Below are positions 21,182 through 48,184 of a stretch of 64,000 nucleotides of DNA, in pieces. The translations under genes and the position numbers were made by a program. Position 1 is the first letter of the stretch. The number at the start of each line of letters is the position of its first letter. Origin of the DNA: Candidatus Saccharimonadota bacterium. GTDB lineage: Bacteria > Patescibacteriota > Saccharimonadia > Saccharimonadales > Saccharimonadaceae. Where the stretch lies: the NCBI GenBank assembly GCA_030445245.1, contig JAUCSD010000001.1:564671-628670 (forward strand), read 5' to 3'. The notes beneath the pieces were generated by a model. It searched no databases. It worked only from the letters and a program-made list of their open reading frames with translations, and was not told the origin of the DNA.

Positions 21182-22615
21182 ATGGCACGTCTTCCAAACG
21201 TTGGTTCCGATGAAGGTACGTGGGGCCAAGTACTCAATGATTTCCTTAGCGTGTCACATAGTGTCGACGGTACGATTAAAGATGTCGGGGTAGTTGCTTC
21301 AAAAGCCAATGACAATGCTGTCGTCCATGTATCCGGTGACGAATCCGTAAGTGGGATCAAAACGTTTGCCGCTTCTCCTATCGTACCGACACCTTCCTCG
21401 CCTACACAAGCAGCAAATAAGGGCTACGTAGACACAGTCACATCATCAGGCGCTCCTAATGCGACTACCATCGCACCTGGACTTGTCCAACTAGCTGGTG
21501 ATCTTGGCGGTACAGCTACTTCCGCTACCGCACCCGTCATTACGAATAATGCAATTACGACGGCAAAGATTGCTACAGGTGCCGTCACTTCAAACGAAAT
21601 TGCTGATAGTACGATCACAAACACCGATATTTCCACTGGGGCTGCTATCGCTAAGAGCAAGCTTGCGGCTCTGAACATTGGAGATGCGGACGTAAATACC
21701 ATATCCGAAAGCAAAGTAACCAACTTGACTACTGATTTAGCGAGCAAGGCTCTGGTGAGCAGGCTCATCTCCACGGGAACGGGTCTTGCGGGCGGAGGCG
21801 ATATATCAGCTAACCGTACGCTCAGCGTGACTCCTGATACGACGACTCAGCGCATTCGCGTAAGCGATGCTGGCACGCTTACGGGTACTCGACCGGAGCT
21901 TAACTTCATTGAAGGCAGCAATATTACGATCACCGAGGCGGATAATTCCGTAAGCAACCGAGTAGACGTTACCATTGCCGCAGCAAGTGGTGGAGGTGGT
22001 GGTTTTCGTGGTGCCTGGAGTACAAATACGACATATAATAGTGGTGATATTGTCACCTACACCTCCTCATCTTTTGGGGCAACCGTATCGAACATTAACA
22101 GTGAACCGATTACGCCGACGCCGTTTCTTAGCGGCACACCCGGAACGGTGGATAGTGGCGACGGTGGCTCGTATGAAATGGGTATTCGGTTTACCGTTAG
22201 CCAACCAGTTCATATGACATCAATTAATTTTTACAGATCGGGCCTGGGCAATGCGGGTCCCCATACCGGACGCCTATGGGATGCTTCGACGCCTGGATCC
22301 GAGACTGTACTCACCTCAGGTACGTTCAATAGCGAGACGACAACTGGCGTTCAAACTGTACCTCTTATCTATGAGCTCCAGCCAGGCGTCACCTATAGCG
22401 TTTCGGTCGGTTTTCCAAGCGGACATTATTCCGTAGATAATAATTATTACACCTCGGCAGTAACTGTGGGTTCCGTTACAGTCCCAGCGGGAGGAAGTCA
22501 TTTCTCAAACTCAATAGGAATATTTCCCAGTCAAGGTGCAGGTACGACTAATTACTGGGTATTTTTGACCTGGGATGAACCTGATGCCAATTGGTCAATC
22601 ATCGGCAGGTTCTAA
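21182..22615 (+). CDS. Mosaic surface protein: shared N-module, fibre-like repeats, DUF4082 domain
   Basis: The 477-residue protein opens with MARLPNVGSDEGTWGQVLND, a module shared with the genes at 28375 and 48184. A fibre-like region follows (GLVQLAGDLGGTAT near residue 100), then a glycine-rich linker and a C-terminal DUF4082-like beta domain (about residues 310-450) with LWDASTPGSETVLTSGTF and a GHYSVDNNYY segment. DUF4082 domains occur on sugar-associated extracellular proteins. No classical signal peptide is seen. AAAGGTGA precedes the start. A role in cell-surface or host-attachment structures is inferred from the domains. Confidence 0.65.
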   Translation: MARLPNVGSDEGTWGQVLNDFLSVSHSVDGTIKDVGVVASKANDNAVVHVSGDESVSGIKTFAASPIVPTPSSPTQAANKGYVDTVTSSGAPNATTIAPGLVQLAGDLGGTATSATAPVITNNAITTAKIATGAVTSNEIADSTITNTDISTGAAIAKSKLAALNIGDADVNTISESKVTNLTTDLASKALVSRLISTGTGLAGGGDISANRTLSVTPDTTTQRIRVSDAGTLTGTRPELNFIEGSNITITEADNSVSNRVDVTIAAASGGGGGFRGAWSTNTTYNSGDIVTYTSSSFGATVSNINSEPITPTPFLSGTPGTVDSGDGGSYEMGIRFTVSQPVHMTSINFYRSGLGNAGPHTGRLWDASTPGSETVLTSGTFNSETTTGVQTVPLIYELQPGVTYSVSVGFPSGHYSVDNNYYTSAVTVGSVTVPAGGSHFSNSIGIFPSQGAGTTNYWVFLTWDEPDANWSIIGRF

Positions 22616-28374: not shown

Positions 28375-30036
28375 ATGTCACGTCTTCCTATACCAGGTTC
28401 TGACAGCGGTTCATGGGGAACAGTCTTGAATGATTTTTTAGATGTCTCCCATAATGCTGACGGTTCACTTAAAAGCAGCCAGGTCGCCTCGGCTGGTGCT
28501 GAGCTAACAAACAACAAAGGTCAGGCAAACGGCTACGCGCCCTTAGACGGATCCTCAAAGGTACCTATTGCAAATCTGCCAGTTGGCTCTATAGGCAATA
28601 CCGTTGCAGCTGGCAACGATAGCCGCATAACCGGGGCTTTGCAATCAGGCGCAGCCGCTGCGGGTGATTTGAGCGGAACCTACCCTAACCCAACGGTTGT
28701 AAAACTTAATGGGGTCACGGTGACTGGAACGCCTGCAAACGGTAAAATATTAACTGCATCTAGTGCTAGCGCCGCTAGCTGGCAGGCACCGTCTAGCAAT
28801 GCTTGGCAGTTTGATGTCCGGACATATGGCGCAGTTGGTGACGGCACGACAAACGATACTACGGCAATTCAGTCGGCGATCGACGCTGCGGCAGCGTACG
28901 GATTAGCCAACCAAGGCTATGCAGAGGTTATATTCGCACCTGCAATATACCTATTATCTTCGACTGCACGCACAGACCGTAGCGGTAACGCACAGCTAGC
29001 TCTTCCTATTATTGCGGCGACAGCGAATAAGCTGACGCTTGCATTTCTTGGTACACAAGATTCTGCGTCAATGCCCCATTGGAACGCAACTACACCACAG
29101 CTAAACGGCGTTGTTTTGAAATCGACATGGAATGCACCTGATCAATCCGGATCATCGAATGAAGGTAGTGTTATTGGTGGCCCAACACTTCCTAACGGAT
29201 ATGTAACTGGCGCTAACTACTCCAACTGCAATATCGTCATTAAAGGCATCCAAATACAGGTGCCTTTTACCGCACGTGGATCAGATACAACGGGTATAGA
29301 CCTTCGGGGTATGGCAAATGCCCATGTTGAGGATGTAGCGTTCTTCCCTGCTGCAACACCCAACCAGTTAAACACGACCTATGCAACTCCAGGTTGGAAT
29401 TTAGGTATCGCCATGCCCGTCCCTGGTAACAATGATTTATCGATAATGAGAAATTGTAGTGTCGAAGGTGCTACGTACGGATTTTACCTTGGCGAACACC
29501 TTTCCGCTGATCGTTTAGCGGCAATTTATTGCTATACCGGCATATTATCAGGCGGTTTCTTTAGTTCGGTTGGTCAGCTTCACTACAACTGGATTGGCAG
29601 CGCAAGTGTTGAGGCTTGCGTAAACGCCGTACATGTTGTTTCTGGCGGCAAAGTTGTGATCAATGCACTTTCTGTCGAAGGAAGTATGAATCACTTAGTA
29701 GACAACGCAGGTACTGCCGTCGGATCGATCGGTCTTGGTGGCATTATAAGTACTATCAATGTTTCCAATCCGACCAACGTCAAGGTAACATACCTCGATG
29801 CTGCAGCTGGAACGGTGGCGGCACCGACTATGCCAGCAAGTACCACGGCATTACGTAATCCATTTTGGAGAGATGCGGCTGTTCAGGTAAACAATGGTAG
29901 TGCTACAGTCACAAATGTTAGCGTTGATGGCGCGACGATTTTAACTGGACCGGGCATGGTAATCGTACCTAGCGGCAAAAGAATAACCGTGACGTACAGC
30001 GGTGGCACGCCCACATGGTCATGGACTTTATTGTAA
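28375..30036 (+). CDS. Mosaic surface protein: shared N-module plus pectate-lyase-like beta helix
   Basis: The 553-residue protein begins MSRLPIPGSDSGSWGTVLND, the shared module, then a fibre-like linker (SGTYPNPTVVKLNGV), then WQFDVRTYGAVGDGTTNDT at about residues 142-162. The last is the hallmark start of pectate-lyase-superfamily right-handed beta helices, also found in phage tailspikes. Repetitive beta-strand sequence follows to about residue 480, then a small C-terminal beta domain. No signal peptide is recognised. It could bind or cut surface polysaccharide of a host cell; catalytic residues cannot be assigned by eye. Confidence 0.7.
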   Translation: MSRLPIPGSDSGSWGTVLNDFLDVSHNADGSLKSSQVASAGAELTNNKGQANGYAPLDGSSKVPIANLPVGSIGNTVAAGNDSRITGALQSGAAAAGDLSGTYPNPTVVKLNGVTVTGTPANGKILTASSASAASWQAPSSNAWQFDVRTYGAVGDGTTNDTTAIQSAIDAAAAYGLANQGYAEVIFAPAIYLLSSTARTDRSGNAQLALPIIAATANKLTLAFLGTQDSASMPHWNATTPQLNGVVLKSTWNAPDQSGSSNEGSVIGGPTLPNGYVTGANYSNCNIVIKGIQIQVPFTARGSDTTGIDLRGMANAHVEDVAFFPAATPNQLNTTYATPGWNLGIAMPVPGNNDLSIMRNCSVEGATYGFYLGEHLSADRLAAIYCYTGILSGGFFSSVGQLHYNWIGSASVEACVNAVHVVSGGKVVINALSVEGSMNHLVDNAGTAVGSIGLGGIISTINVSNPTNVKVTYLDAAAGTVAAPTMPASTTALRNPFWRDAAVQVNNGSATVTNVSVDGATILTGPGMVIVPSGKRITVTYSGGTPTWSWTLL

Positions 30037-34223: not shown

Positions 34224-36284
34224 TTATTCGGTTATATTACCGGTAGCTGTGCCTGACATAAGCGGTGTCGTATATCCTTCGTAACCTAAGTGCATCACCA
34301 TACCGCCCGCCGCATGCTCCAAGTTATGGCAATGATCCATCCAAAGCCCCGGATTATTTGCGCTAAAAGCTACTTCGTAAGACTCGCCAGGCCCAACGTC
34401 AATAGTGTCAGTCCACCAGGGGCTCCCCGTAGATGGTTGACCATTTCTACTAAGCACGAGCATTTGATGACCGTGAAGATGCATTGGATGGGACTGTGGG
34501 CTACGGTTATAAAAAGTTGTCTTTACCTTGTCACCTTCTTTTACCATGAGCATAGGTGTATTTGGGGAAAGCTTACCATTAATGGCATATGAGATACCAA
34601 AACGGCCATCGTAAAATCCCACATTGGGATCAAGATATAAGCTAAATTCTCTATCAAAATGCGTGTTAGCATTGAGGACAGTTTTTGTCGTCTGTCCATA
34701 TGACAGCAGGTCAAGCTCAGTTCCAGCCGGGATTACCGGCGCACTGGCGGTGCCATCAGGGCTCCATGTCGTTCCAATATCATGCGGTGTAAATGCGATA
34801 CTTTCCGATCGACCAAAGAAAACTAGTCCGTTAGGCATAGTAAAGGTAATATCACGGCGTCCGCCGGCTGGCACTCGAAGACGTGTATCTCGCAGTATAC
34901 CTGGTTGATTGACAGCATTACCGTCTATTGCAACTACTTTAAAGTCTACACCGTGAAGGACAAAGGACTTAGAGCCGTTGGCGGTATTGATAATACGTAA
35001 TCGCACTGGCGTACCTGGCGTTATCTTCTGGCGCTGTAACGTGTCTGCTAAATCTAAAGAACCAGAACCGTCCCATTCATGATAAGCCAAACTGACGTCC
35101 TTCTCATGAGCAATCGGCGGTATTTTTGGTAGAATTGTTATTTTGCCAAATAGTCCCTTTTCAACCTCTACTGATGATTGTTCGTGTGAATGATACCAGA
35201 AGGTACCTACCTGTTTTGCTTTAAATCTATACGTAAATGTTTCGCCGGGTTTCACGGCGTCTTGCGTGAGGCCAGGAACACCATCCTCAGTGTTAGGGAC
35301 ATCAATGCCGTGCCAATGCAGCGTGATGTTACGGTTTGGAAGATTATTTTTTAGAGCTACTTCCAGAATATCACCTTCATGAATCGTGATTTGCGGGCCA
35401 GGTATTTGACCATTGAACGTCAGAGCATCGATTTGCTTGCCTGAGCTGAGAGTGATGCGCTTCTCTTGGGCTGCAAGATCAAAATGCTGAACAGGGCCAC
35501 TAAGATCCTTCTCGGTAAGTGTGGTTACATCTATAGAGCTACCGCCGCTCATGTCCGTACCCGGCATATTATTCGTCATGCCATTTAACGCCTGACCAGT
35601 TTCCATCGGACCACTCATCATGCTATAGCGCTCGGGGAGTCGACCGTTTATATCGTTAAAAGCCGCTAAGGCGCCGACGATACAGACGACAAGCGTAACT
35701 ACGCCCACTATTCTCAATAGGAATTGTCGAACACCTAGATGATATTTATCAAGTACTTTTCTCTTAAGCATGAGAACTCGTCGCCAATAAAGCAATATAC
35801 TTGATGCAATAATAATTAGCCAAAATATCAGAAGGGTGTATCCGAACGCGAGCGTATCAACATGGAATACTGCGTAAACAGTCAACAAACCGCCCAAAGC
35901 GGCTATTTGAGCTGGCAATACAAGCTGAGGGTCAATAAGATTAAGGTGTTGGTTGATATAATCTCGCGTATAGAGTACGCGCCAGAGACGTGGCACTGTC
36001 TTCCAGATCAGCATAATACAAATCGGAAGTAACACAGGCAAGACAAGTACGAATGTGAGCTCGCCATACCACCAACCAGAAAGATGCCACATATACAATG
36101 ATACCCCTACTTTGAAGAGTAAGGTAAGTATGCCAAGAAAGAGAGTGACAAAACCGGTCCATGCCTTTATCCTGATAGACGTTTTTTTGTAGCTGTACGC
36201 TAAGCTACTTACTGCGGTTGCTGTTACTAACCACAAGAGAGCTATTACTCCACCTAATGCGAGATTTAGTAGATAGAGTGACAT
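34224..36284 (-). CDS. Membrane-anchored multicopper oxidase
   Basis: The first 210 residues hold about six membrane helices; a linker rich in Met and Gly follows (PMETGQALNGMTNNMPGTDM), possibly copper-binding. The remaining part is a cupredoxin-type multicopper oxidase with all four copper motifs: HWHG (about 322), WYHSHEQ (about 364), HPMHLHGH (about 597) and HCHNLEHAAGGM (about 648). It should oxidise a substrate such as Cu(I), Fe(II), Mn(II) or phenolics at the cell surface and reduce O2 to water. Two-domain length of the oxidase part is typical. A membrane N-domain fused to a multicopper oxidase is less common. Confidence 0.9.
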   Translation of the reverse strand: MSLYLLNLALGGVIALLWLVTATAVSSLAYSYKKTSIRIKAWTGFVTLFLGILTLLFKVGVSLYMWHLSGWWYGELTFVLVLPVLLPICIMLIWKTVPRLWRVLYTRDYINQHLNLIDPQLVLPAQIAALGGLLTVYAVFHVDTLAFGYTLLIFWLIIIASSILLYWRRVLMLKRKVLDKYHLGVRQFLLRIVGVVTLVVCIVGALAAFNDINGRLPERYSMMSGPMETGQALNGMTNNMPGTDMSGGSSIDVTTLTEKDLSGPVQHFDLAAQEKRITLSSGKQIDALTFNGQIPGPQITIHEGDILEVALKNNLPNRNITLHWHGIDVPNTEDGVPGLTQDAVKPGETFTYRFKAKQVGTFWYHSHEQSSVEVEKGLFGKITILPKIPPIAHEKDVSLAYHEWDGSGSLDLADTLQRQKITPGTPVRLRIINTANGSKSFVLHGVDFKVVAIDGNAVNQPGILRDTRLRVPAGGRRDITFTMPNGLVFFGRSESIAFTPHDIGTTWSPDGTASAPVIPAGTELDLLSYGQTTKTVLNANTHFDREFSLYLDPNVGFYDGRFGISYAINGKLSPNTPMLMVKEGDKVKTTFYNRSPQSHPMHLHGHQMLVLSRNGQPSTGSPWWTDTIDVGPGESYEVAFSANNPGLWMDHCHNLEHAAGGMVMHLGYEGYTTPLMSGTATGNITE

Positions 36285-39960: not shown

Positions 39961-40131
39961 AAAAACAGCTCGCTTATACGAACTGTTTTGTGGATAATTT
40001 CCTGGCTAAGGAGGGGGTTCCTAGTCAAAACTTTTGAGAATGACGAGAAGAGTGAAGACCTAGAACATGACATCCAGTTAATGCGCCGGCTGCTTGACGA
40101 AGATGAAACTAGGTCGGAGGCGGAATTATGA
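39961..40131 (+). CDS. Small acidic ORF of the PLD cassette, with tRNA-end scar 9
   Basis: A hairpin (AAAACAG...CTGTTTT, 39962-39989) and TGGCTAAGGAGG at 40003 form the scar. The plus-strand frame reads IISWLRRGFLVKTFENDEK, then an acidic helix ending LMRRLLDEDETRSEAEL at TGA 40131. It overlaps the next gene's ATG (ATGA), so it is translationally coupled to the PLD-type nuclease. No start codon is evident within the scar. Homologous segments at 24.5, 45.0 and 48.5 kb keep the SWLGRRxLFQTF and LLDE parts. It may be an antitoxin- or adaptor-like partner, by position only. Confidence 0.45.
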   Translation, partial: KNSSLIRTVLWIISWLRRGFLVKTFENDEKSEDLEHDIQLMRRLLDEDETRSEAEL

Positions 40132-40607
40132 GACCTCCCTTCTCTTTCTGTCGTTCGAGGAGCTTGTCAACTCAAGTTCTCACATCCGAACTCTTTAATG
40201 AACGGACATTCTATCCCGCCCTTCTAAAAGACCTGACAAAATGTCAGAGCGAAGTGATTATCGAAAGCCCATTTTTAACAACCAGGCGCGTATCAATGAT
40301 TCTTCCTACTCTCATAAGTCTAAAAAGTCGCGACACAAAGATCATCGTTAACACTCGCGACCCTCTTGGACAGGAGGGCTATATGCGGCTAGAGGCAGAA
40401 CGCTCCATAGAATTATTACAGGATGCCGGTATTACAATCTTCGTTACGGGCGGTCACCATAGAAAGCTGGTGATTCTTGATAGGACTATCCTTTACGAAG
40501 GAAGCCTTAATGTGCTTTCGCAGAACGATAGTTGTGAGGTGATGCGAAGGATTGAGTCGATGCATCTAGCTTCGCAAATGATAGAGTTCGTAGGATTAGA
40601 TCGATGA
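40128..40607 (+). CDS. PLD-superfamily nuclease-like protein (single HKD)
   Basis: The 159-residue protein has one HxKxxxxD motif (HRKLVILD) followed by YEGSLNVLSQ, and an N-terminal SELFNERTFYPALLKDL...VIIESPFL region typical of PLD-like modules on restriction or helicase proteins. One motif per chain implies a dimeric active site, as in Nuc/BfiI. GGAGG precedes the ATG, which overlaps the upstream stop. A damaged second copy lies at 45.1 kb. Likely a DNA or RNA phosphodiesterase; whether it is a toxin, a defence factor or part of a mobile cassette is unknown. Confidence 0.75.
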   Translation: MRPPFSFCRSRSLSTQVLTSELFNERTFYPALLKDLTKCQSEVIIESPFLTTRRVSMILPTLISLKSRDTKIIVNTRDPLGQEGYMRLEAERSIELLQDAGITIFVTGGHHRKLVILDRTILYEGSLNVLSQNDSCEVMRRIESMHLASQMIEFVGLDR

Positions 40608-40614
40608 TTATGGC

Positions 40615-41046
40615 TTAGGACACATGTCCTTGTCCGCATCGATCACAGTATCCTTGCATTTCAAGTTGATGTTGCTTCAAAACAAAGCCGTGTGTTTCGC
40701 CTAGTCGATTAATCATAGCTTCAAAAGCAGGATCATCCTTTACGGCAATGACTCGACCACAGCCCAGGCAGGTCATGTGGTGATGATGCTCGAGAAAGAT
40801 ATCACTTAGCTCTATCTTGTATTTCCAGCCTATGTTTATTCGCTGCGCTATGCCAAGTTTCTCGTAAAGTTCTATTACCCTATACACGCTAACTCGATCG
40901 ATTATCCCTTTGGATGCCTCGATAAGTTGATGCATCGTTTGTGGCCCCGTCGCTTTTAAGAGAAGATCAAAGACAAACAGCCGCGCTTTTGTTGCACTAT
41001 AATTACTATCTCGAAGAATCTTAATAAACAATTGGTTCTGGCTCAT
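40615..41046 (-). CDS. fur: Fur-family metal-responsive regulator
   Basis: The start is set at 41046 (MSQNQLFIKILRD). The 143-residue protein has the winged helix, then EHHHHMTCLGCGRVI and a C-terminal GYCDRCG, giving both Cys-X2-Cys zinc pairs and the histidine-rich sensor region. Fur, Zur, Mur or PerR type cannot be separated by eye. A -10-like TACTAT at 41055-41060 near the start and a TTGCAA palindrome at the -35 position suggest an autoregulated near-leaderless gene. It is divergent from the CooC-like/isonitrile-synthase-like pair, its probable target. Confidence 0.88.
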   Translation of the reverse strand: MSQNQLFIKILRDSNYSATKARLFVFDLLLKATGPQTMHQLIEASKGIIDRVSVYRVIELYEKLGIAQRINIGWKYKIELSDIFLEHHHHMTCLGCGRVIAVKDDPAFEAMINRLGETHGFVLKQHQLEMQGYCDRCGQGHVS

Positions 41047-41067
41047 GTAGCAAAATAGTATCATGGA

Positions 41068-41084
41068 TTGCAACAAAATTGCAA
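41068..41084. promoter_or_regulatory. Candidate Fur-family box
   Basis: TTGCAA at 41068-41073 and again at 41079-41084, each self-palindromic and 11 bases apart, make a symmetric site between the divergent fur and ATPase genes. The second copy doubles as a -35 box for fur. One helical turn between half-sites suits a dimeric winged-helix regulator. Confidence 0.55.
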
Positions 41085-41139
41085 AAGATAATAAACTCCT
41101 ATTAAATACAGCCTAGACTAACAAGAAAGGAAACACTAA

Positions 41140-42096
41140 ATGAAAATTGCATTTGTCGGTAAAGGCGGTAGCGGTAAAACAACCCTCTCTTCCCTCTTCA
41201 CACGAAGCTTAGACGATCAAAAGACGAACGTACTCGCAATTGACGCGGATATTAATCAACATATGGCTCAGGCACTTGGTGCAGATGAGGCGCTTGCTGG
41301 TTCAATACCAGCGCTCGGTCTTGATATGATCCGGGTGAAAGACTACTTACGAGGCATAAACGCACGCATTAAGAGCAGTAAGAGTATGATCAAGACAACG
41401 CCACCTGGAACTGGCAGTCGCTTGTTAAAAATCAGTCAACCAAATCCTCTTTTCGACCATTTTGCTCGTAAAATTAGCAACATCACATTTATGGCAACGG
41501 GTGCACTAAGCGAAGAAGATCTTGGACTCAAGTGCTACCACTCAAAACTTGGTGCGACCGAACTAATCTTGAGTCACCTGATTGACCAGCCAAACGAATA
41601 TGTCGTTGTTGACATGACCGCTGGAGCAGATTCATTTGCTGGTGGTATGTTTATGAAGTTTGATGTCACGTTCCTTATTACTGAACCAACATTAAAAGGT
41701 GTGAGCGTCTACCATCAATATAAAGAATATGGCAAAGAACATAACATTAATCTCAAAGTCATTGGTAACAAGGTGGAAAATAGTGATGATGTTGCCTTCT
41801 TGCGCAAGCATGCCGGTGACGACCTCCTTGCTACTTTTAGTCACTCGCAGTACGTACGTGCTTTAGAGAAGGGCGAGCATCTTGCACTCGCTGAGTTAGA
41901 ACCGAAGAACCAAGCCGTCTTGCAAGTGATTAAGATGGAGGCAGATAAAGTAGTGAAAGATTGGGACGTATTCTATAGGCAGCAAGTGAATCTCCATATA
42001 AAAACTTCTGAATCTTGGGCAAATCATGAAGCCGGAGAAGATCTGACACTTCAGATCGATCCTGACTTCTCTCTATCTGAAGCTGCAAAGATTTAG
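41140..42096 (+). CDS. CooC/MinD-type deviant Walker A ATPase
   Basis: The 318-residue protein has the deviant Walker A FVGKGGSGKTTLSS at residues 5-18 and IDADINQHM at about 39-47, then VVVDMTAGADSF, placing it with CooC/ParA/MinD-like P-loop ATPases. CooC types help insert metal (for example nickel) into enzymes; others position complexes. AAGAAAGGAA precedes the ATG. It is four bases upstream of the isonitrile-synthase-like gene and faces a Fur regulator, which favours a metal-linked task. A maturation or loading role is inference. Confidence 0.8.
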   Translation: MKIAFVGKGGSGKTTLSSLFTRSLDDQKTNVLAIDADINQHMAQALGADEALAGSIPALGLDMIRVKDYLRGINARIKSSKSMIKTTPPGTGSRLLKISQPNPLFDHFARKISNITFMATGALSEEDLGLKCYHSKLGATELILSHLIDQPNEYVVVDMTAGADSFAGGMFMKFDVTFLITEPTLKGVSVYHQYKEYGKEHNINLKVIGNKVENSDDVAFLRKHAGDDLLATFSHSQYVRALEKGEHLALAELEPKNQAVLQVIKMEADKVVKDWDVFYRQQVNLHIKTSESWANHEAGEDLTLQIDPDFSLSEAAKI

Positions 42097-42099
42097 CTG

Positions 42100-43482
42100 G
42101 TGATTGATAGCACTATTGAAAAACATATGCAGACTCTCACTATTCCTAATAAATTCCAATCGCTCATAGAAGCAGACCATATACAATGCTACGCCGAACA
42201 TGAACGTGTTGGGAAAAGCATTGTTCTGACACAAGATGACGTTAGATCAAGGTTACTACCCGCAATAACAAGTGGTGCAGCTATCCACGTTGCTCAGCGT
42301 CAGCGGAGCATTACCAAAAGAATCGGCACCGATCCTCTGGAAGCTACTGTAGAAGCATTGTATGATTCGCATTTTAGAAAGCAACGGAACTTTGGACCAA
42401 CTCGTGAAGCAATTCGCGATAAAGTACAACAGGCTATTGCTAACAAAGAACCGATCACACTTGTTTCCTTGATGTTCACTCGCAAAAATGTGTGCACCCT
42501 CAAACGTAACGGTGATGATATCGCAGCACTCGATCTCGCAGAAATTCTTTCTCTCGTTCACTTGAATTCGTTCGCCGAGCTGATTAACAGCTTCTATCCC
42601 TACGGTGTACAGTATGTCATCCTGAGCGAGGGTACACGTTTTTCGCGTGCCTTTAGTCTATCTGACGATCGAGTGCGTCTGTACCAAGCACGGCTCACTG
42701 GCTGGATTAAGCGCCTTGATCTCTCGCATCTAAAAGTAATTGATTATGAACAGTTCCTGCTTGACCGATTAAGCATCGAGGATTGGGAGCTGAGAACGAC
42801 GACTTACGAGCAGACACTGGCTGAATATAAGGATCTCATGGAGCCAATCTTTAATCCAATGAATATGGACGAGACGCTTACAAAAGCCATCGCTCGTGAT
42901 CCAATTGTTGATGTGCACAATTCACGTAATAACTTTGTACCACTATGGGACTCTATCAAAAATTCTCTTGCCTATCCAGCAATTACAACGACCGCACGTA
43001 GACGAGGCCTAGAGCACGCAACGCTCTACCAAGATCTTTTTCGTACTCTTTTCGTGCCACGAGCTGATCTGGAAGAGGAACAATTGAGAATGAGCATCCT
43101 GTGGGGGTCCTGGGATGCAGCTATTGAACACAATGCTCGGGTCCTTAGTGATATGAGAGTCGGCATTGATGTGGCCGCCATGCTCTCAAACAATGCCTTT
43201 CGAGCGACAATTAACCCAAAGCCGGGTTCGCCGAATCTTGGTATATATTCTGTACGCGAGACAACTAGTCGCGTACAGCCTTGGCATGGTACGGCATACT
43301 TGAGAGCGGATAGTCAGGGGCGACTGCTTCCAACCGTCCTATCGAAACTGGAGATTGAAGGTCGAGGTGGGATTCCTGTATGCATCGATACACGTCATGA
43401 TCATCCGTTTTTCTATGTCGACTCATCAGCATCTTCCCTTCTATCGATAGAGGAGCTTGTCTTTAATATGTCAACTCGCTAA
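42100..43482 (+). CDS. DIT1/PvcA isonitrile-synthase-like protein
   Basis: The start is GTG 42100, with an alternative ATG at 42127. The 460-residue protein contains LDLAEILSLVHLNSFAELI, YPYGVQYVILSEGTRFSRAF and SLSDDRVRLYQARL, closely following the DIT1/PvcA pattern. Its C-terminal part has VQPWHGTAYLRADSQGRLLP, with the PWH typical of the family. Isonitrile synthases join the amine of Tyr, Trp or a related amino acid to a carbon from ribulose 5-phosphate. Length exceeds PvcA by over 100 residues. The usual PvcB-type oxygenase partner is absent. Divergent Fur control would fit a metal-binding isonitrile. The family call rests on motif memory. Confidence 0.6.
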   Translation: MIDSTIEKHMQTLTIPNKFQSLIEADHIQCYAEHERVGKSIVLTQDDVRSRLLPAITSGAAIHVAQRQRSITKRIGTDPLEATVEALYDSHFRKQRNFGPTREAIRDKVQQAIANKEPITLVSLMFTRKNVCTLKRNGDDIAALDLAEILSLVHLNSFAELINSFYPYGVQYVILSEGTRFSRAFSLSDDRVRLYQARLTGWIKRLDLSHLKVIDYEQFLLDRLSIEDWELRTTTYEQTLAEYKDLMEPIFNPMNMDETLTKAIARDPIVDVHNSRNNFVPLWDSIKNSLAYPAITTTARRRGLEHATLYQDLFRTLFVPRADLEEEQLRMSILWGSWDAAIEHNARVLSDMRVGIDVAAMLSNNAFRATINPKPGSPNLGIYSVRETTSRVQPWHGTAYLRADSQGRLLPTVLSKLEIEGRGGIPVCIDTRHDHPFFYVDSSASSLLSIEELVFNMSTR

Positions 43483-43539
43483 ATAGTGTCTCCGGTCCAC
43501 CTATATAGTTTATAGCGTGTAGCTTATACTAATAGAGTC

Positions 43540-44742
43540 ATGTCAGCGCATCATCATCCTATTAGTAAAGTACTTTCTCTAGCAGCGAGCCGTAAACTTA
43601 AAAAGCAACATATAATTTACGGCTCAATAATTGCACTTGTGTTATTCGTTAGTGCAATGAGCCTATCAGATCTCAGCCCATTTAACACATCTAACGGAGA
43701 GCTACGATATTACAGGGCAACCGTTCTACAAGTTGAAGATATCACGTTGCAAGATGGACGCAGCCAAGGTATCAAGGTCCAGTTATTGGACGGGGGAGAC
43801 AAAGGGCATGTCGTTGGCGTTACTCGCAATGTCAATTTTGGAGATGCAACGTATAAACATCTACCAGTAGGTAGCGAACTGCTCCTAACAAAGGACTCGG
43901 CTGGCGGTAGCCAGTATCTCTACGGTGATCGCTGGCATATGCCCGGCGTTGCAGCACTATTTCTTATACTTCTCGTGCTTGTTATCATCGTTGGGGGCTG
44001 GCGAGGTGTGACGAGTGTTCTCGGACTAGTGATAAGCATCGGCATATTATCAGTTTACGTATTACCGCAAATACTGAGTGGCTACTCAGCGTATGCTGCC
44101 TGCATACAAGGAGCGCTCATGATAACTGTTGTATCGGTCTATGTCGCGCATGGTTTCAGTCGCCGCACCACGATGGCCTTAATTGGCTCGGTCGTCACTT
44201 TGTTCATAATTGTGGGTCTCGTTGCACTAGCGACGTACCTGACGGGAATTTCAGAGGTGATTGATGAAAATACAATGGGCATACTCTACGGCTCTCACCC
44301 TATTAGCCTCGGAGATTTATTAACTGGTGGGATAGTGATTGCTTCACTCGGTGTTCTCTACGATATTACAACTAGTCAAGCGGCTGCCGTGGATGAAATA
44401 TACAAAGCCAATAAGAAACAATCATTCAAGACATTATTTGGTAAAGGATTATCGGTGGGACGAGAGCATGTTGCAGCCCTCGTGAATACATTAGCGTTAG
44501 TGTATGTCGGCGTAGCTTTACCTTCTATCGTCATCACCTCGCTGTATAACCACGCACCGCTCCTGGTTATCTTCAACGATGAGACGATCATCGAGGAAGT
44601 GGTACGTACTTGTGTCGCAAGCATTGGTATGCTTTTTGCTCTTCCGATCACTACCGCGCTTGCGGCTTATGTTTTGCCAAAATGGTACGCAACGAACAAT
44701 CGTCAGTTGATGAAGCGTGTTAAGATACTAATAAATTGGTGA
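43540..44742 (+). CDS. YibE/F-family membrane protein
   Basis: The 400-residue protein has one N-terminal helix (about 27-46), an extracytoplasmic domain of about 80 residues and then seven or so membrane helices, with RGVTSVLGLVISI, GDLLTGGIVIASLGVLYDIT and AALVNTLALVYVGVALP, the YibE/F pattern. The biochemical function of the family is unknown. TATACT lies nine bases before the ATG, so it may have its own promoter 57 bases after the isonitrile-synthase-like gene. Confidence 0.8.
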   Translation: MSAHHHPISKVLSLAASRKLKKQHIIYGSIIALVLFVSAMSLSDLSPFNTSNGELRYYRATVLQVEDITLQDGRSQGIKVQLLDGGDKGHVVGVTRNVNFGDATYKHLPVGSELLLTKDSAGGSQYLYGDRWHMPGVAALFLILLVLVIIVGGWRGVTSVLGLVISIGILSVYVLPQILSGYSAYAACIQGALMITVVSVYVAHGFSRRTTMALIGSVVTLFIIVGLVALATYLTGISEVIDENTMGILYGSHPISLGDLLTGGIVIASLGVLYDITTSQAAAVDEIYKANKKQSFKTLFGKGLSVGREHVAALVNTLALVYVGVALPSIVITSLYNHAPLLVIFNDETIIEEVVRTCVASIGMLFALPITTALAAYVLPKWYATNNRQLMKRVKILINW

Positions 44743-45102
44743 TGATGCACTCCCTCATTACTCATCTAAGTCTTAGGTGAATCCTTCAAGACTTGCTGGC
44801 AAGTGACTCCGAGAGCTCTTTGCTATGGCGTGTTCCAGCATTACCGAATAAAATTAAGCTCAAAGGCGTTAAGTGCTAAGGTGTTCGTGTGGTCGTTCAT
44901 GTCTTATTATGTCCAAGAGGAGAAAAGGGATTCGAACTTTTTCGTAGCAAAAAAGTCTACAGCTTAATCTGTAGACTTTCTCATAATTTCCTGGCTGGGG
45001 AGGAGGGACTTGTTCCAACTTTTTGACGGTGACGTAAAGTGTGATGTTGAAGAGGTACAAAAGTTGCTTGATGATGAGAGGGACGAGGAGGTGGCGCAAT
45101 GA
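44743..45102 (+). repeat. tRNA-end scar 10 with small-ORF copy
   Basis: From 44918 the sequence reads AGGAGAAAAGGGATTCGAAC (a minus-strand T-arm fragment), then AAAGTCTACAG/CTGTAGACTTT (44952-44979), then TGGCTGGGGAGGAGG at 44992. The frame from there gives SWLGRRDLFQLFDGD and VQKLLDDERDEE to TGA 45102, overlapping the ATG of the PLD remnant. About 107 bases are some 85 percent similar to scar 11 at 48416. The part before 44918 holds no gene. Confidence 0.65.
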
Positions 45103-45382
45103 TATTCCGCCGATCTAAGAGTCTTCCGGTCTTCTCGCGTCCGAACTCTTTGACCAAAACACTTTCTACCCTGCCCTTCAAAAAGACTTGCGTTTATGCC
45201 AAGACGAACTGATTATCGAAAGTCCGTTCATAACAAAGGGACGTATTGAGGGCTACGCTATAGATGAGGAGATAAGAAGACGGGTTAGTGCAGCGTCACA
45301 GAAAAACTATGTTAGGGAATATATGAAACTGGAGGAGAGATTACTGAGCTGTCAAAGAAATCAAAGTCAGAAACTAAAGTGA
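45099..45382 (+). pseudogene. PLD-type nuclease remnant
   Basis: ATG 45099 opens MIFRRSKSLP, then a frame change near 45125-45135 leads to LLASELFDQNTFYPALQKDL and IIESPFITKGRIE, clearly homologous to the intact gene at 40128. The remainder keeps only a YMKLEERLLSC-like piece; the HKD motif is lost. It is a frameshifted, internally deleted copy of the same cassette gene. Confidence 0.75.
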
Positions 45383-45488: not shown

Positions 45489-46649
45489 CTAAGGATTTGC
45501 TGCAATAAGCGTCGCTAAATCACTCAATGTAGCACGCCCAGCTTGTCCACTAGTCAGGCTGTCATAATTAAGCCATATCAACCCTTGATAGCCAGTAGTT
45601 ATTGATGGACTTCCAGGATAGCTTGCTGTTGAAAGTGCCGAGCCATATGTTGCACCTGAGAAAATCGCTTGCATACCGGCTGTAGATTCATTACCCGTAT
45701 TTTCACCCATCATTCGGTGATGCTTATTGCGTTTAAGGGCCTCTTCGTAAATTTTCTTCCAAGCACTTTTATCGGAATCGACGGTACCACCTGGAAATCC
45801 ATCTGCCGTATTTAACCAAGTGCAGTAAGGCCAAACATCAGGGTGTTTCATCGTCCATGCTATGGCGCGTACCGGGTCTTCACCGTACGCTGCCGCTTGT
45901 TTATAGCCGCTACTACTATGGGCTTGATTGGAACGTACACCATAGCCCGGAAGCATTACATGTACCTCTGCCGTAAAGCCTATGGATCGATGCTGCTGAT
46001 AATACCATTCCAGCCAAGTAATCAGACCGTTAAGGTACCAATTAGTCCAAATAGAGTCATTGGTGTCACTACCACCACTAAAAGGAATATATCCAGGCAA
46101 CGGACATACAACCTGGTCAGTTGCAAGACCAACACCAGTCTGCATTGATGCACCAAAGCCCCAAAATGAAAAACCAGTAGAATAGACGCCTGGATAATGA
46201 GCTTCTCCGTACCAACCCCCGCCCATACGAATGGCCGCCACTTGCTTAACGCGTCCGTCGCCTAGACCAAGCGCTACTTTGCTCATAAAATCGGCCACAC
46301 ACTGCCGACCAAGTGCAGTCCAAAACCAGTTACGTACAATCTTGCCAGAGGCAGTCGTATCGTTAACGTTACCGCTTTGATCAACGAAGTTTTCAATACC
46401 TGTTTGCACCCATGCGGGTGGGTATTGTAGATTAAAGTCAAAGATGACCTTCAAGCCCACGCTGGCACAATCATCAAATTCCTGGCAAAGTATAGCAATT
46501 GCCGAGGCGTCGAGTGCCGTACCTACACCATTAGGCTGCAGGCTACTCCATGAAGCTGGCACATCAGCATGGGTCACTCCGGCTACTCGTATCTGACGCT
46601 TTGCATTTATATCACCGACAGGCATTGAGAGTACCCCATATGTCTTCAT
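45489..46649 (-). CDS. TIM-barrel glycoside-hydrolase-like protein
   Basis: The start is taken at 46649, where it overlaps the upstream stop (TAATG); a start 18 bases earlier is possible. The 386-residue protein has an alternating strand-helix pattern with GLKVIFDFNLQYPPAW, IRMGGGWYGEAHYPG and RMMGENTGNES. The two glutamates after strands would suit the acid/base and nucleophile of a clan-A glycosidase. No signal peptide is seen. Coupling to the mosaic surface protein suggests joint export or assembly, perhaps as a glycan-processing unit. The family cannot be fixed by eye. Confidence 0.5.
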   Translation of the reverse strand: MKTYGVLSMPVGDINAKRQIRVAGVTHADVPASWSSLQPNGVGTALDASAIAILCQEFDDCASVGLKVIFDFNLQYPPAWVQTGIENFVDQSGNVNDTTASGKIVRNWFWTALGRQCVADFMSKVALGLGDGRVKQVAAIRMGGGWYGEAHYPGVYSTGFSFWGFGASMQTGVGLATDQVVCPLPGYIPFSGGSDTNDSIWTNWYLNGLITWLEWYYQQHRSIGFTAEVHVMLPGYGVRSNQAHSSSGYKQAAAYGEDPVRAIAWTMKHPDVWPYCTWLNTADGFPGGTVDSDKSAWKKIYEEALKRNKHHRMMGENTGNESTAGMQAIFSGATYGSALSTASYPGSPSITTGYQGLIWLNYDSLTSGQAGRATLSDLATLIAANP

Positions 46650-48184
46650 TAGTTCACTGCCATCCAAGAAACAATATTACTGGTAAGAGAGCTAGTAAGC
46701 GTGATGGTACTTGGCATACTAGTCAAGCCGGAGCCATACGATGCTTGTCGTGGGTTGGCCGATGTTACTCCAGCGTTAACGGCTGCGTTTGGTGCGGCGG
46801 CGGAGGCTCGCCCAAATTGTGGAATGGTTGTTCCATTTGCAAGGACTGACAGATAGTAGTAGCCCGCCGTGACAGATTGAGGAGTGGTGAGCGCCATAGT
46901 CTTTAAGCCAAGCGTCGTCCATACAGAAGATTGATCTGCGGTCGTCGAGAGTAGTGTGCCGCTGGCGTTATATAGTGCTGCATAATTAGCATTAACCGTT
47001 AGACTTGCGCCAATAGTACCCACGTATATTAGAATATTTGTAAGTGTTGTGTTTGCCGAAATAGAGATCTTTGCCAATAAGATGACACCGGCTGGCGGCG
47101 CGGCATTGGCGGCAATCATAGCCGGGTCGTAGTCCCAGGCAATAAGACCCTGATCACCAGGACCGGGGTAGCTCGAACCCGCAGGCCCAGTCGCACCCTG
47201 CGAACCAATCGAAACGAAAAGTACCCAAGGACTATTAGGCGCACCGGGTGTACCAGGGTTAACTCCTGTCGTACCGGCCGAAGCATAGTACGCCGAACCG
47301 TTGTATGTCACGCAATCATTTATGCCGTACGTCGTAGCGTTATTATATGTGCCACGTAGCGTAAGACCTGTCGGACCAGCAGGACCAGCAGGACCAGGTG
47401 CCGCAAGTTGTGCCCACTTCGTGCTATCTGTACCCGGCGTAACGTTTGCACTAGTAGCCAGTGCTATGTAGGTACCACCGTTATAGGTTACTACACTGGC
47501 TGGCGGACCAGCAGTATATGTAGTGACAGATGACCAAACCGCAACCGTTGCCCAAGGCGAGGTAGCCGTGAAGCTCGCCCACTTGATGCCCCCAGTTTGA
47601 GCCGAATCTTTCGTAAGAACCTGGTCGTTATTTCCGCCAGTTAAGGAAAGCTTCGCGTTCGTCACACTCCCATCCATAGGTACACGCTGGTCGGTCAATC
47701 GTGAGTCGCTCGTTACAACAACATTTGTGCCATTTGCTGTCAGGCCACCAGTAAAATCCTTAGCTCCCGTGATTGTTTCAGTCGTAGCCTTATGGACAAC
47801 CGCTGTGTCGGTTGCTTTGCCAGTAAGCCCTGGCACCGTCGGGCTCGTTGCTGTTCCACCAAGATCACCCGTCAACTGGACAATGCCCTTGGTCGTAGGA
47901 CTAGCATCTGGTGCTCCAGCTGAGACAGTACTATCTACATACGATTTGTTAGCTGCTTGAGAGCCAAGCGTTGGCGTCGGTACGACAGGTGAGGCTTGAA
48001 AGGTCTTAGTCCCGGAGATGGACTCATTGCCGGTGTTGTGAACGACGGCAGTATCATCAGCTTTGCTGGCTATTACTCCACTAGCTTTGAGTGTGCCGTC
48101 TGGATTATGGGCAACATCAAGAAAGTCGTTGAGAATAGTTCCCCACGTACCGTCATCCCGTCCAGGTGTTGGTAATCTCGACAT
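46649..48184 (-). CDS. Mosaic surface protein: shared N-module, CBM-like and collagen-like parts
   Basis: The 511-residue protein starts MSRLPTPGRDDGTWGTILND and stays similar to the protein at 21182 for about 120 residues (KTFQASPVVPTP, GIVQLTGDLGGTATSPTVP). Then come two carbohydrate-binding CBM5/12-like units (VVTYNGGTYIALATS and CVTYNGSAYYASAGTT), short collagen-like GPAGPAGPTG stretches and a C-terminal beta-sandwich-like region. No signal peptide is found. It is translationally coupled to the glycosidase-like gene. A glycan-binding fibre is the likely role. Confidence 0.65.
   Translation of the reverse strand: MSRLPTPGRDDGTWGTILNDFLDVAHNPDGTLKASGVIASKADDTAVVHNTGNESISGTKTFQASPVVPTPTLGSQAANKSYVDSTVSAGAPDASPTTKGIVQLTGDLGGTATSPTVPGLTGKATDTAVVHKATTETITGAKDFTGGLTANGTNVVVTSDSRLTDQRVPMDGSVTNAKLSLTGGNNDQVLTKDSAQTGGIKWASFTATSPWATVAVWSSVTTYTAGPPASVVTYNGGTYIALATSANVTPGTDSTKWAQLAAPGPAGPAGPTGLTLRGTYNNATTYGINDCVTYNGSAYYASAGTTGVNPGTPGAPNSPWVLFVSIGSQGATGPAGSSYPGPGDQGLIAWDYDPAMIAANAAPPAGVILLAKISISANTTLTNILIYVGTIGASLTVNANYAALYNASGTLLSTTADQSSVWTTLGLKTMALTTPQSVTAGYYYLSVLANGTTIPQFGRASAAAPNAAVNAGVTSANPRQASYGSGLTSMPSTITLTSSLTSNIVSWMAVN

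What the first reader, a model, noticed from the sequence alone, without database searches (positions are those of the whole stretch)
40615..44742. Fur-controlled CooC-like ATPase and isonitrile-synthase-like pair
A Fur-family regulator with a symmetric TTGCAA box faces a deviant-Walker ATPase and a protein with DIT1/PvcA features (LDLAEILSLVHL, EGTRFSRAFSL, PWHGTAY). Isonitriles bind transition metals tightly and Fur control suggests metal stress or acquisition. The usual oxygenase partner is missing and an ATPase takes its place, followed by a YibE/F membrane protein. A metal-linked isonitrile pathway in an ultra-small epibiont would be new to me. The gnd gene in the same island makes ribulose 5-phosphate, the donor used by known isonitrile synthases, but that link may be chance.
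Basis: partly seen in the sequence, partly recalled or inferred. Interest (0 to 1): 0.75.

Follow-up and report, generated by a model that had tools for sequence, protein, structure and literature searches.

The report
Zinc-switch operon with isonitrile-synthase relative
In a tiny 1.16-Mb bacterial genome, a gene related to enzymes that make metal-binding isonitriles sits directly behind an ATPase in an operon whose switch also marks the cell's zinc importer, so the gene probably takes part in coping with zinc (or a similar metal) shortage, though its product is unknown.

Summary
The Fur-family gene faces a CooC-like ATPase across an exact TTGCAA-N5-TTGCAA box, and the next gene, 3 nt behind the ATPase, is a true DIT1_PvcA member (Pfam E 4e-17), distant from every characterised isonitrile synthase. 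Context changes the reading. The divergent Fur/ATPase pair is an old, conserved unit: 18 of 20 same-family loci keep it, and all 20 have the box. What follows the ATPase varies: PLP enzymes, SDR, COG0523-type GTPases, unknown proteins, ZIP zinc transporters at four loci, and in one genome a DIT1-like gene of another subfamily plus ZIP. In this genome the same perfect box also lies between a 75%-identical Fur paralogue and znuABC. In Ktedonobacteraceae the ATPase is divergent from ZnuA, with a Fur or COG0523 gene nearby. The ATPase replaces CooC's Cys-x-Cys with an invariant Cys-x-His. I therefore read the locus as a Zur-like zinc-limitation operon whose variable slot holds an isonitrile-synthase homologue. 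Zinc control is likely. Isonitrile production is plausible but untested: the model of the synthase failed, and the box also equals the nickel (Nur) consensus. YibE/F and gnd are probably bystanders.

The parts
40615..41046 (-). Fur-family regulator, Zur-like by context; ATG start at 41046
   Evidence: Pfam FUR 3.3e-14; 75% identical to the Fur paralogue next to znuABC in the same genome; divergent orthologues in 18 of 20 related loci; HHHH and two CxxC motifs kept, Zur-type Cys absent
41068..41084 (.). Operator TTGCAA-CAAAA-TTGCAA in the divergent promoter region
   Evidence: Exact 12/12 match; at least 10/12 upstream of the ATPase in all 21 loci, against 2.3% of random 172-nt stretches; same perfect box before znuABC
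41140..42096 (+). CooC/MinD-class (SIMIBI) ATPase with Cys-x-His in place of CooC's Cys-x-Cys
   Evidence: PDB CooC 3kje E 1.1e-10; predicted fold nearest to 3kje, E 1.9e-12; H41, C132, H134, H146, H286 identical in 81 of 81 sequences
42100..43482 (+). DIT1_PvcA-family protein (isonitrile-synthase homologue), GTG start 3 nt after the ATPase stop
   Evidence: PF05141 4e-17; 9dhm 1.9e-10, 3e59 2.1e-6; plasmid isonitrile-synthase-family proteins 24% over 78%, E 2e-16
43540..44742 (+). YibE/F membrane protein downstream; probably not part of the unit
   Evidence: PF07907 2.5e-57; no homologue found in the 20 related loci

Best explanation
This is a metal-limitation operon, most likely for zinc. 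The Fur-family protein, charged with zinc, sits on the TTGCAA-N5-TTGCAA box and represses both itself and the ATPase-synthase operon; when zinc falls the box is released (inferred from position and from Zur/Fur practice). The ATPase is a CooC-like P-loop switch that binds and moves a metal ion through its Cys-x-His loop (inferred from homology and invariance). The DIT1_PvcA protein condenses an amino acid with a sugar phosphate to make an isonitrile, or a closely related N-formyl or imine product, that serves as a ligand for the scarce metal (inferred). It fills a slot that related genomes fill with other small-molecule enzymes. Shown here: gene content, order, box, conservation, family membership and the link to znuABC, ZIP and COG0523-type genes. 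Not shown: metal identity, repression, catalysis and product.
For: DIT1_PvcA membership. Conserved divergent Fur-ATPase unit in 18 of 20 related loci, and the same box in all 20. Same perfect box and a 75% identical Fur paralogue at znuA, znuC and an ABC-3 permease in this genome. ZIP transporters at the same locus in L050, L053, L057 and L069. cobW/COG0523-type GTPases in L055 and L065. In Ktedonobacteraceae the ATPase is divergent from ZnuA, with a Fur gene (L105) or a COG0523-type gene (L102) nearby. Zur-box-like sites at -37 to -59 in three actinomycetes (9 of 10 positions; random rate 0.2%). A second DIT1-like gene, of another subfamily, in the same operon position in L050. Invariant Cys-x-His. 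GC3 of the synthase gene equals that of its neighbours, so it does not look like a recent import.
Against: The Fur protein lacks the Zur-type Cys ligand, and the box is also the published Nur (nickel) consensus. Isonitriles are soft ligands better suited to copper or nickel than zinc (general knowledge); a mycobacterial diisonitrile first described as a zinc metallophore was found by others to serve copper and not zinc (PMC9600254). Synthase plus ATPase occur together only here, plus the divergent L050 case; most DIT1-like genes in the family are elsewhere. No exporter or receptor for a product was identified. Most Streptomyces homologues of the ATPase lack a Zur box.
Confidence: 0.5

Rival explanations
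1. The regulator is a nickel (Nur-like) or other non-zinc sensor, and the operon serves nickel or copper; the isonitrile is a nickel or copper ligand and the ATPase a nickel chaperone like CooC.
For: The box equals the published Nur consensus tTGCaa-N5-ttGCAA (PMC3919588); the closest solved ATPase is the nickel-loading CooC; isonitriles bind Cu(I) and Ni well (general knowledge); a third perfect box lies about 175 nt upstream of an SBP_bac_5 protein, a family that includes nickel- as well as peptide-binding proteins.
Against: Same box and near-identical Fur at znuABC; ZIP and COG0523-type genes in related operons; CooC's Cys-x-Cys is replaced by Cys-x-His in every homologue examined; ZnuA linkage in Ktedonobacteraceae.
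Confidence: 0.2
2. The DIT1_PvcA protein is not an isonitrile synthase: the scaffold does other chemistry on an amino acid or a metabolite under metal limitation.
For: Only 42.6 bits against the 600-bit PvcA equivalog cut-off; about 100-residue N-terminal extension and divergent centre; no TauD-type partner in the genome; related operons carry quite different enzymes in this slot.
Against: The main family motifs are kept, including D145 and PWHGT; proteins of similar length on plasmids carry the isonitrile-synthase-family label and sit in clusters with a DJ-1/PfpI protein, a methyltransferase and an MFS transporter.
Confidence: 0.3
3. Only Fur and the ATPase form a functional unit; the synthase homologue landed behind it by chance and has an unrelated role.
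For: Unique gene in a genus represented by one genome; flanked by two diverged copies of a PLD-like gene pair that might mark an exchange site.
Against: 3-nt spacing and same strand; intact frame with normal GC3; independent placement of another DIT1-like gene behind the ATPase in L050.
Confidence: 0.12

Closest known systems
PvcA / IsnA-type isonitrile synthases (PF05141; PDB 3e59, 9dhm)
   Same: Family membership, conserved motifs around D145, SEG, Y195, RxxIxPK and PWHG
   Different: Distant sequence (18-22% to the bacterial members aligned), about 100-residue N-terminal extension, far below the PvcA equivalog cut-off, ATPase partner and no TauD-type Fe/2OG oxygenase
Fungal copper-responsive isocyanide synthase clusters (crm, xan; PMC5974471)
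   Same: DIT1-type synthase under metal-responsive control with transport genes nearby
   Different: Copper-fist regulators, fungal NRPS hybrids, copper not zinc
CooC nickel-insertion ATPase (PDB 3kje)
   Same: Fold, deviant P-loop, metal-motif position
   Different: Cys-x-His instead of Cys-x-Cys; longer C terminus; no CO dehydrogenase gene seen nearby; linked to Znu, ZIP and Fur-family genes
Zur regulons with COG0523 GTPases and znuABC (review PMC6103462)
   Same: Fur-family switch, znuABC, ZIP and COG0523-type genes share the context
   Different: CooC does not occur in that review; Zur Cys ligand absent here; box of the Nur type
Zur-controlled opine zincophores (staphylopine, pseudopaline) and staphyloferrin B enzymes SbnA/SbnB/SbnH
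   Same: Related operons carry PALP, OCD and Orn/DAP-decarboxylase families, the classes of SbnA, SbnB and SbnH (class match from general knowledge)
   Different: Orthology not tested; no staphylopine synthase identified; different partner set

Membership tests
DIT1_PvcA (PF05141) | Score above the curated family cut-off | tested here: met
   63 bits against 26.4
DIT1_PvcA (PF05141) | Conserved motifs of solved members, including the PWHG region | tested here: met
   Aligned to 3e59 and 9dhm
L-tyrosine isonitrile synthase PvcA (NF045653) | Equivalog cut-off | tested here: not met
   42.6 bits against 600
Isonitrile synthase (function) | Catalytic residues in place on a model | tested here: inconclusive
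   Single-sequence model at pLDDT 33
Isonitrile synthase (function) | Isonitrile formed from amino acid plus ribulose 5-phosphate | not testable with these tools
   Needs enzyme assay
CooC | SIMIBI/MinD-class fold closest to CooC | tested here: met
   Foldseek rank 1, E 1.9e-12; phmmer 1.1e-10
CooC | Cys-x-Cys metal motif | tested here: not met
   Cys-Tyr-His in all 81 of one set; C132 and H134 invariant in the other set of 14
Fur superfamily | FUR domain, structural CxxC pairs | tested here: met
Zur | Regulatory Cys before the His cluster | tested here: not met
   Glu-Leu in place of Cys; the Ktedonobacter Fur protein has a Cys there
Zur | Operator shared with zinc uptake genes | tested here: met
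   Perfect box between the Fur paralogue and znuABC
Nur | Box tTGCaa-N5-ttGCAA | tested here: met
   Consensus from PMC3919588
Nur | Nickel binding at the His site | not testable with these tools
   Needs metal-binding assay

The most novel reading that the evidence does not exclude
These small-genome bacteria share a zinc-limitation device made of a Zur-like repressor and a Cys-x-His ATPase, and each lineage plugs a different small-molecule enzyme set into it; in this genome the plugged-in part makes an isonitrile metal ligand, which would be, as far as I know, the first isonitrile pathway in such a reduced bacterium and the first PvcA-type enzyme under zinc control.
Probability: 0.3. Interest if true: 0.82.

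Novelty: new variant of a known kind. Interest (0 to 1): 0.62.

Why it matters
Such reduced bacteria are thought to make almost nothing for themselves. A conserved metal-regulated unit that carries biosynthetic enzymes would mean they invest in winning trace metals, perhaps against their host cell. It also exposes a widespread CooC-like ATPase family with an invariant Cys-x-His that is linked to Fur-family, ZnuA, ZIP and COG0523-type genes in several phyla; I found no description of it in the papers searched. The metal question is directly testable.

Tried and rejected
Close homologues of the synthase by peptide scan in genome and viral collections: none; phages: none. Alignment-based scan of the synthase: no conserved stretch. 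CO dehydrogenase maturation as the ATPase role: set aside because CooC's metal motif is not met and the recurrent neighbours are zinc genes. Recent gene exchange: GC and GC3 are ordinary. Association of DIT1-like genes with the ATPase across the family: not supported beyond L050. Structure of the synthase: single-sequence model useless. Sigma-70 promoter and terminator scan: no clear excess over shuffles. ZnuA with the box in sister genomes: only one other of 20 genomes (G347) has ZnuA at all, in a different context.

Full report
What is there. The finding's four genes are real. The Fur-family gene (40615-41046, minus) and the ATPase gene (41140-42096, plus) diverge from a 93-nt gap that holds TTGCAACAAAATTGCAA at 41068-41084. 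The DIT1_PvcA gene starts with GTG at 42100, 3 nt after the ATPase stop. Pfam gives FUR 3.3e-14, the CbiA/ParA class for the ATPase, DIT1_PvcA 4e-17 and YibE_F 2.5e-57. Against solved structures the 460-aa protein matches isonitrile synthase 9dhm (1.9e-10) and PvcA 3e59 (2.1e-6); a profile of the longer relatives recovers the same structures and the PWHG motif. It is far from the PvcA equivalog model (42.6 bits, cut-off 600), and its best plasmid relatives are annotated isonitrile-synthase-family proteins of Klebsiella at 24% identity over 78%. So it belongs to the family; its exact reaction is open.

How rare is it? PF05141 matches 4 of 393 genomes of the class and 7 of 287 across the phylum sample, the window's own genome included in each. 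The genus has one genome, and no close orthologue was found.

The older unit. The ATPase is more widespread than the synthase: 23 of 198 same-family genomes, the window's included, hold a clear homologue (E below 1e-20). In 18 of 20 fetched loci a Fur-family gene lies divergently next to it. The TTGCAA-N5-TTGCAA box (at least 10 of 12) stands upstream of the ATPase in all 21 loci, the window included; random stretches of the same length reach 10 or more in 2.3% of cases. What follows the ATPase changes. By Pfam on representatives: PALP plus rhodanese (L062); Orn/DAP decarboxylase, PALP plus rhodanese and class-V aminotransferase (L067); ornithine-cyclodeaminase family and cobW (L065); SDR and cobW (L055); two aminotransferases (L050). 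ZIP zinc transporters follow in L050, L053, L057 and L069. Other loci were assigned by eye. In L050, whose ATPase is the closest to ours within the family (48%), the operon also holds a DIT1-like gene. Pfam does not call it, but it aligns at 1e-26 to the L016 protein and at 5e-27 to the L017 protein; L016 is above the PF05141 cut-off. The two DIT1-type genes belong to different subfamilies, so the slot seems to have been filled twice. Most DIT1-like genes of the family lie elsewhere, so this is an observation on two loci, not a statistical association.

Which metal? In this genome three places match the box perfectly. One is ours. One lies between a Fur paralogue 75% identical to ours and a ZnuA-ZnuC-ABC-3 operon on the same strand. 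The third is about 175 nt upstream of an SBP_bac_5 gene. With up to one mismatch allowed, matches equal the reversed-pattern control (7 against 6), so only perfect sites should be trusted. Outside the phylum, the ATPase of Ktedonobacter racemifer is divergent from ZnuA with a Fur gene behind it, and another Ktedonobacteraceae contig has ZnuA and a cobW/COG0523-type gene. Three actinomycete homologues have Zur-box-like sites at -37 to -59 matching 9 of 10 specified positions of a published motif (motif from PMC5472717); Streptomyces homologues do not. Against zinc: the box is also the published Nur consensus (PMC3919588), and our Fur protein lacks the Cys that the Ktedonobacter protein keeps before its His cluster. 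I give zinc about 0.7 and nickel or another metal about 0.2.

The ATPase. A model built with 13 homologues reached pLDDT 89.8 and its nearest solved fold is CooC. CooC's Cys-x-Cys falls where this family has Cys-Tyr-His; H41, C132, H134, H146 and H286 are identical in 81 of 81 sequences, and C132 and H134 are invariant in the second set of 14. The loop 125-134 has low confidence in the monomer model, so the site itself is not modelled. A metal switch or chaperone role is inferred.

The synthase. Conserved positions (D145, Y195, R368, I371, K374, P394, H396) align with the family. A model from the single sequence failed (pLDDT 33), so catalytic geometry is untested. The usual Fe/2OG partner family (TauD) is absent from the genome. 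A metal-ligand role for isonitriles has precedent in copper-responsive fungi (PMC5974471) and in mycobacteria, where zinc (PMC10961391) and copper-only (PMC9600254) readings conflict; isonitriles are soft ligands, which weakens a direct zinc-ligand role.

Bystanders. YibE/F has no counterpart in the 20 related loci. gnd lies 13 kb away. Two diverged copies (73-74%) of a short gene pair flank the block at 39994-40281 and 44983-45236.

Identity of the organism. Small size, a singleton genus and the phylum-level sample fit a patescibacterium, probably Saccharibacteria; this is my inference.

Verdict. A genuine DIT1_PvcA gene in a Zur-like operon with a CooC-like ATPase: a new variant of a known kind. 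No paper in the searched library joins isonitrile synthase with Saccharibacteria.

Noticed in passing
L092:3719-6969 (own genome, about 797.7-801 kb): Fur paralogue, perfect TTGCAA box and ZnuA-ZnuC-ABC-3 permease operon on one strand.
   Followed up: yes
L091:4360-6346 (own genome, about 680 kb): Third perfect TTGCAA-N5-TTGCAA box about 175 nt upstream of an SBP_bac_5 solute-binding protein.
   Followed up: partly
window 39994-40281 and 44983-45236: Diverged direct copies (73-74%) of a PLD-like gene pair flank the Fur-ATPase-synthase-YibE/F block; the right copy looks partly degraded.
   Followed up: partly
L105:7081-7563, L101:6053-6430, L110:7076-7465, L057:6729-7145, L049:13004-13414: A small protein of Pfam family KH_NucS_shadow (PF20704, by Pfam or tblastn) follows the ATPase in several lineages and often ends in Asp-Cys; as a neighbour gene it does not look like a shadow frame there.
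   Followed up: partly
L011:9926-14896: A 1656-aa protein with a DIT1_PvcA segment near its N terminus and, by eye, kinase-like and HAD-like parts, in a same-family genome.
   Followed up: no
L012, L016, L017, L018, L050: A divergent DIT1-like subfamily (GGYK..DWAE motif, PWHG lost); homologues of its L050 member occur in 12 of 198 same-family genomes, mostly away from the ATPase.
   Followed up: partly
L024:11959-17418 (Klebsiella plasmid): Two DIT1-type genes in tandem (the second, annotated hypothetical, is a weak match at 3e-4, below the cut-off) with a methyltransferase, a DJ-1/PfpI protein and an MFS transporter.
   Followed up: no
L108, L111, L160 upstream of the ATPase: A shared element near GGAGTGGTCTTCTTCA precedes the ATPase in several Streptomyces and relatives, in place of a Zur-like box.
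   Followed up: no
window 34224-36284: A multicopper oxidase with a long membrane-spanning N-terminal part lies 4 kb from the block.
   Followed up: no
window 21182-22615, 28375-30036, 46649-48184: Three proteins share an N-terminal stretch like MSRLPTPGRDDGTWGTILNDFLDVAHN and then diverge, resembling swappable surface or tail-fibre proteins.
   Followed up: no
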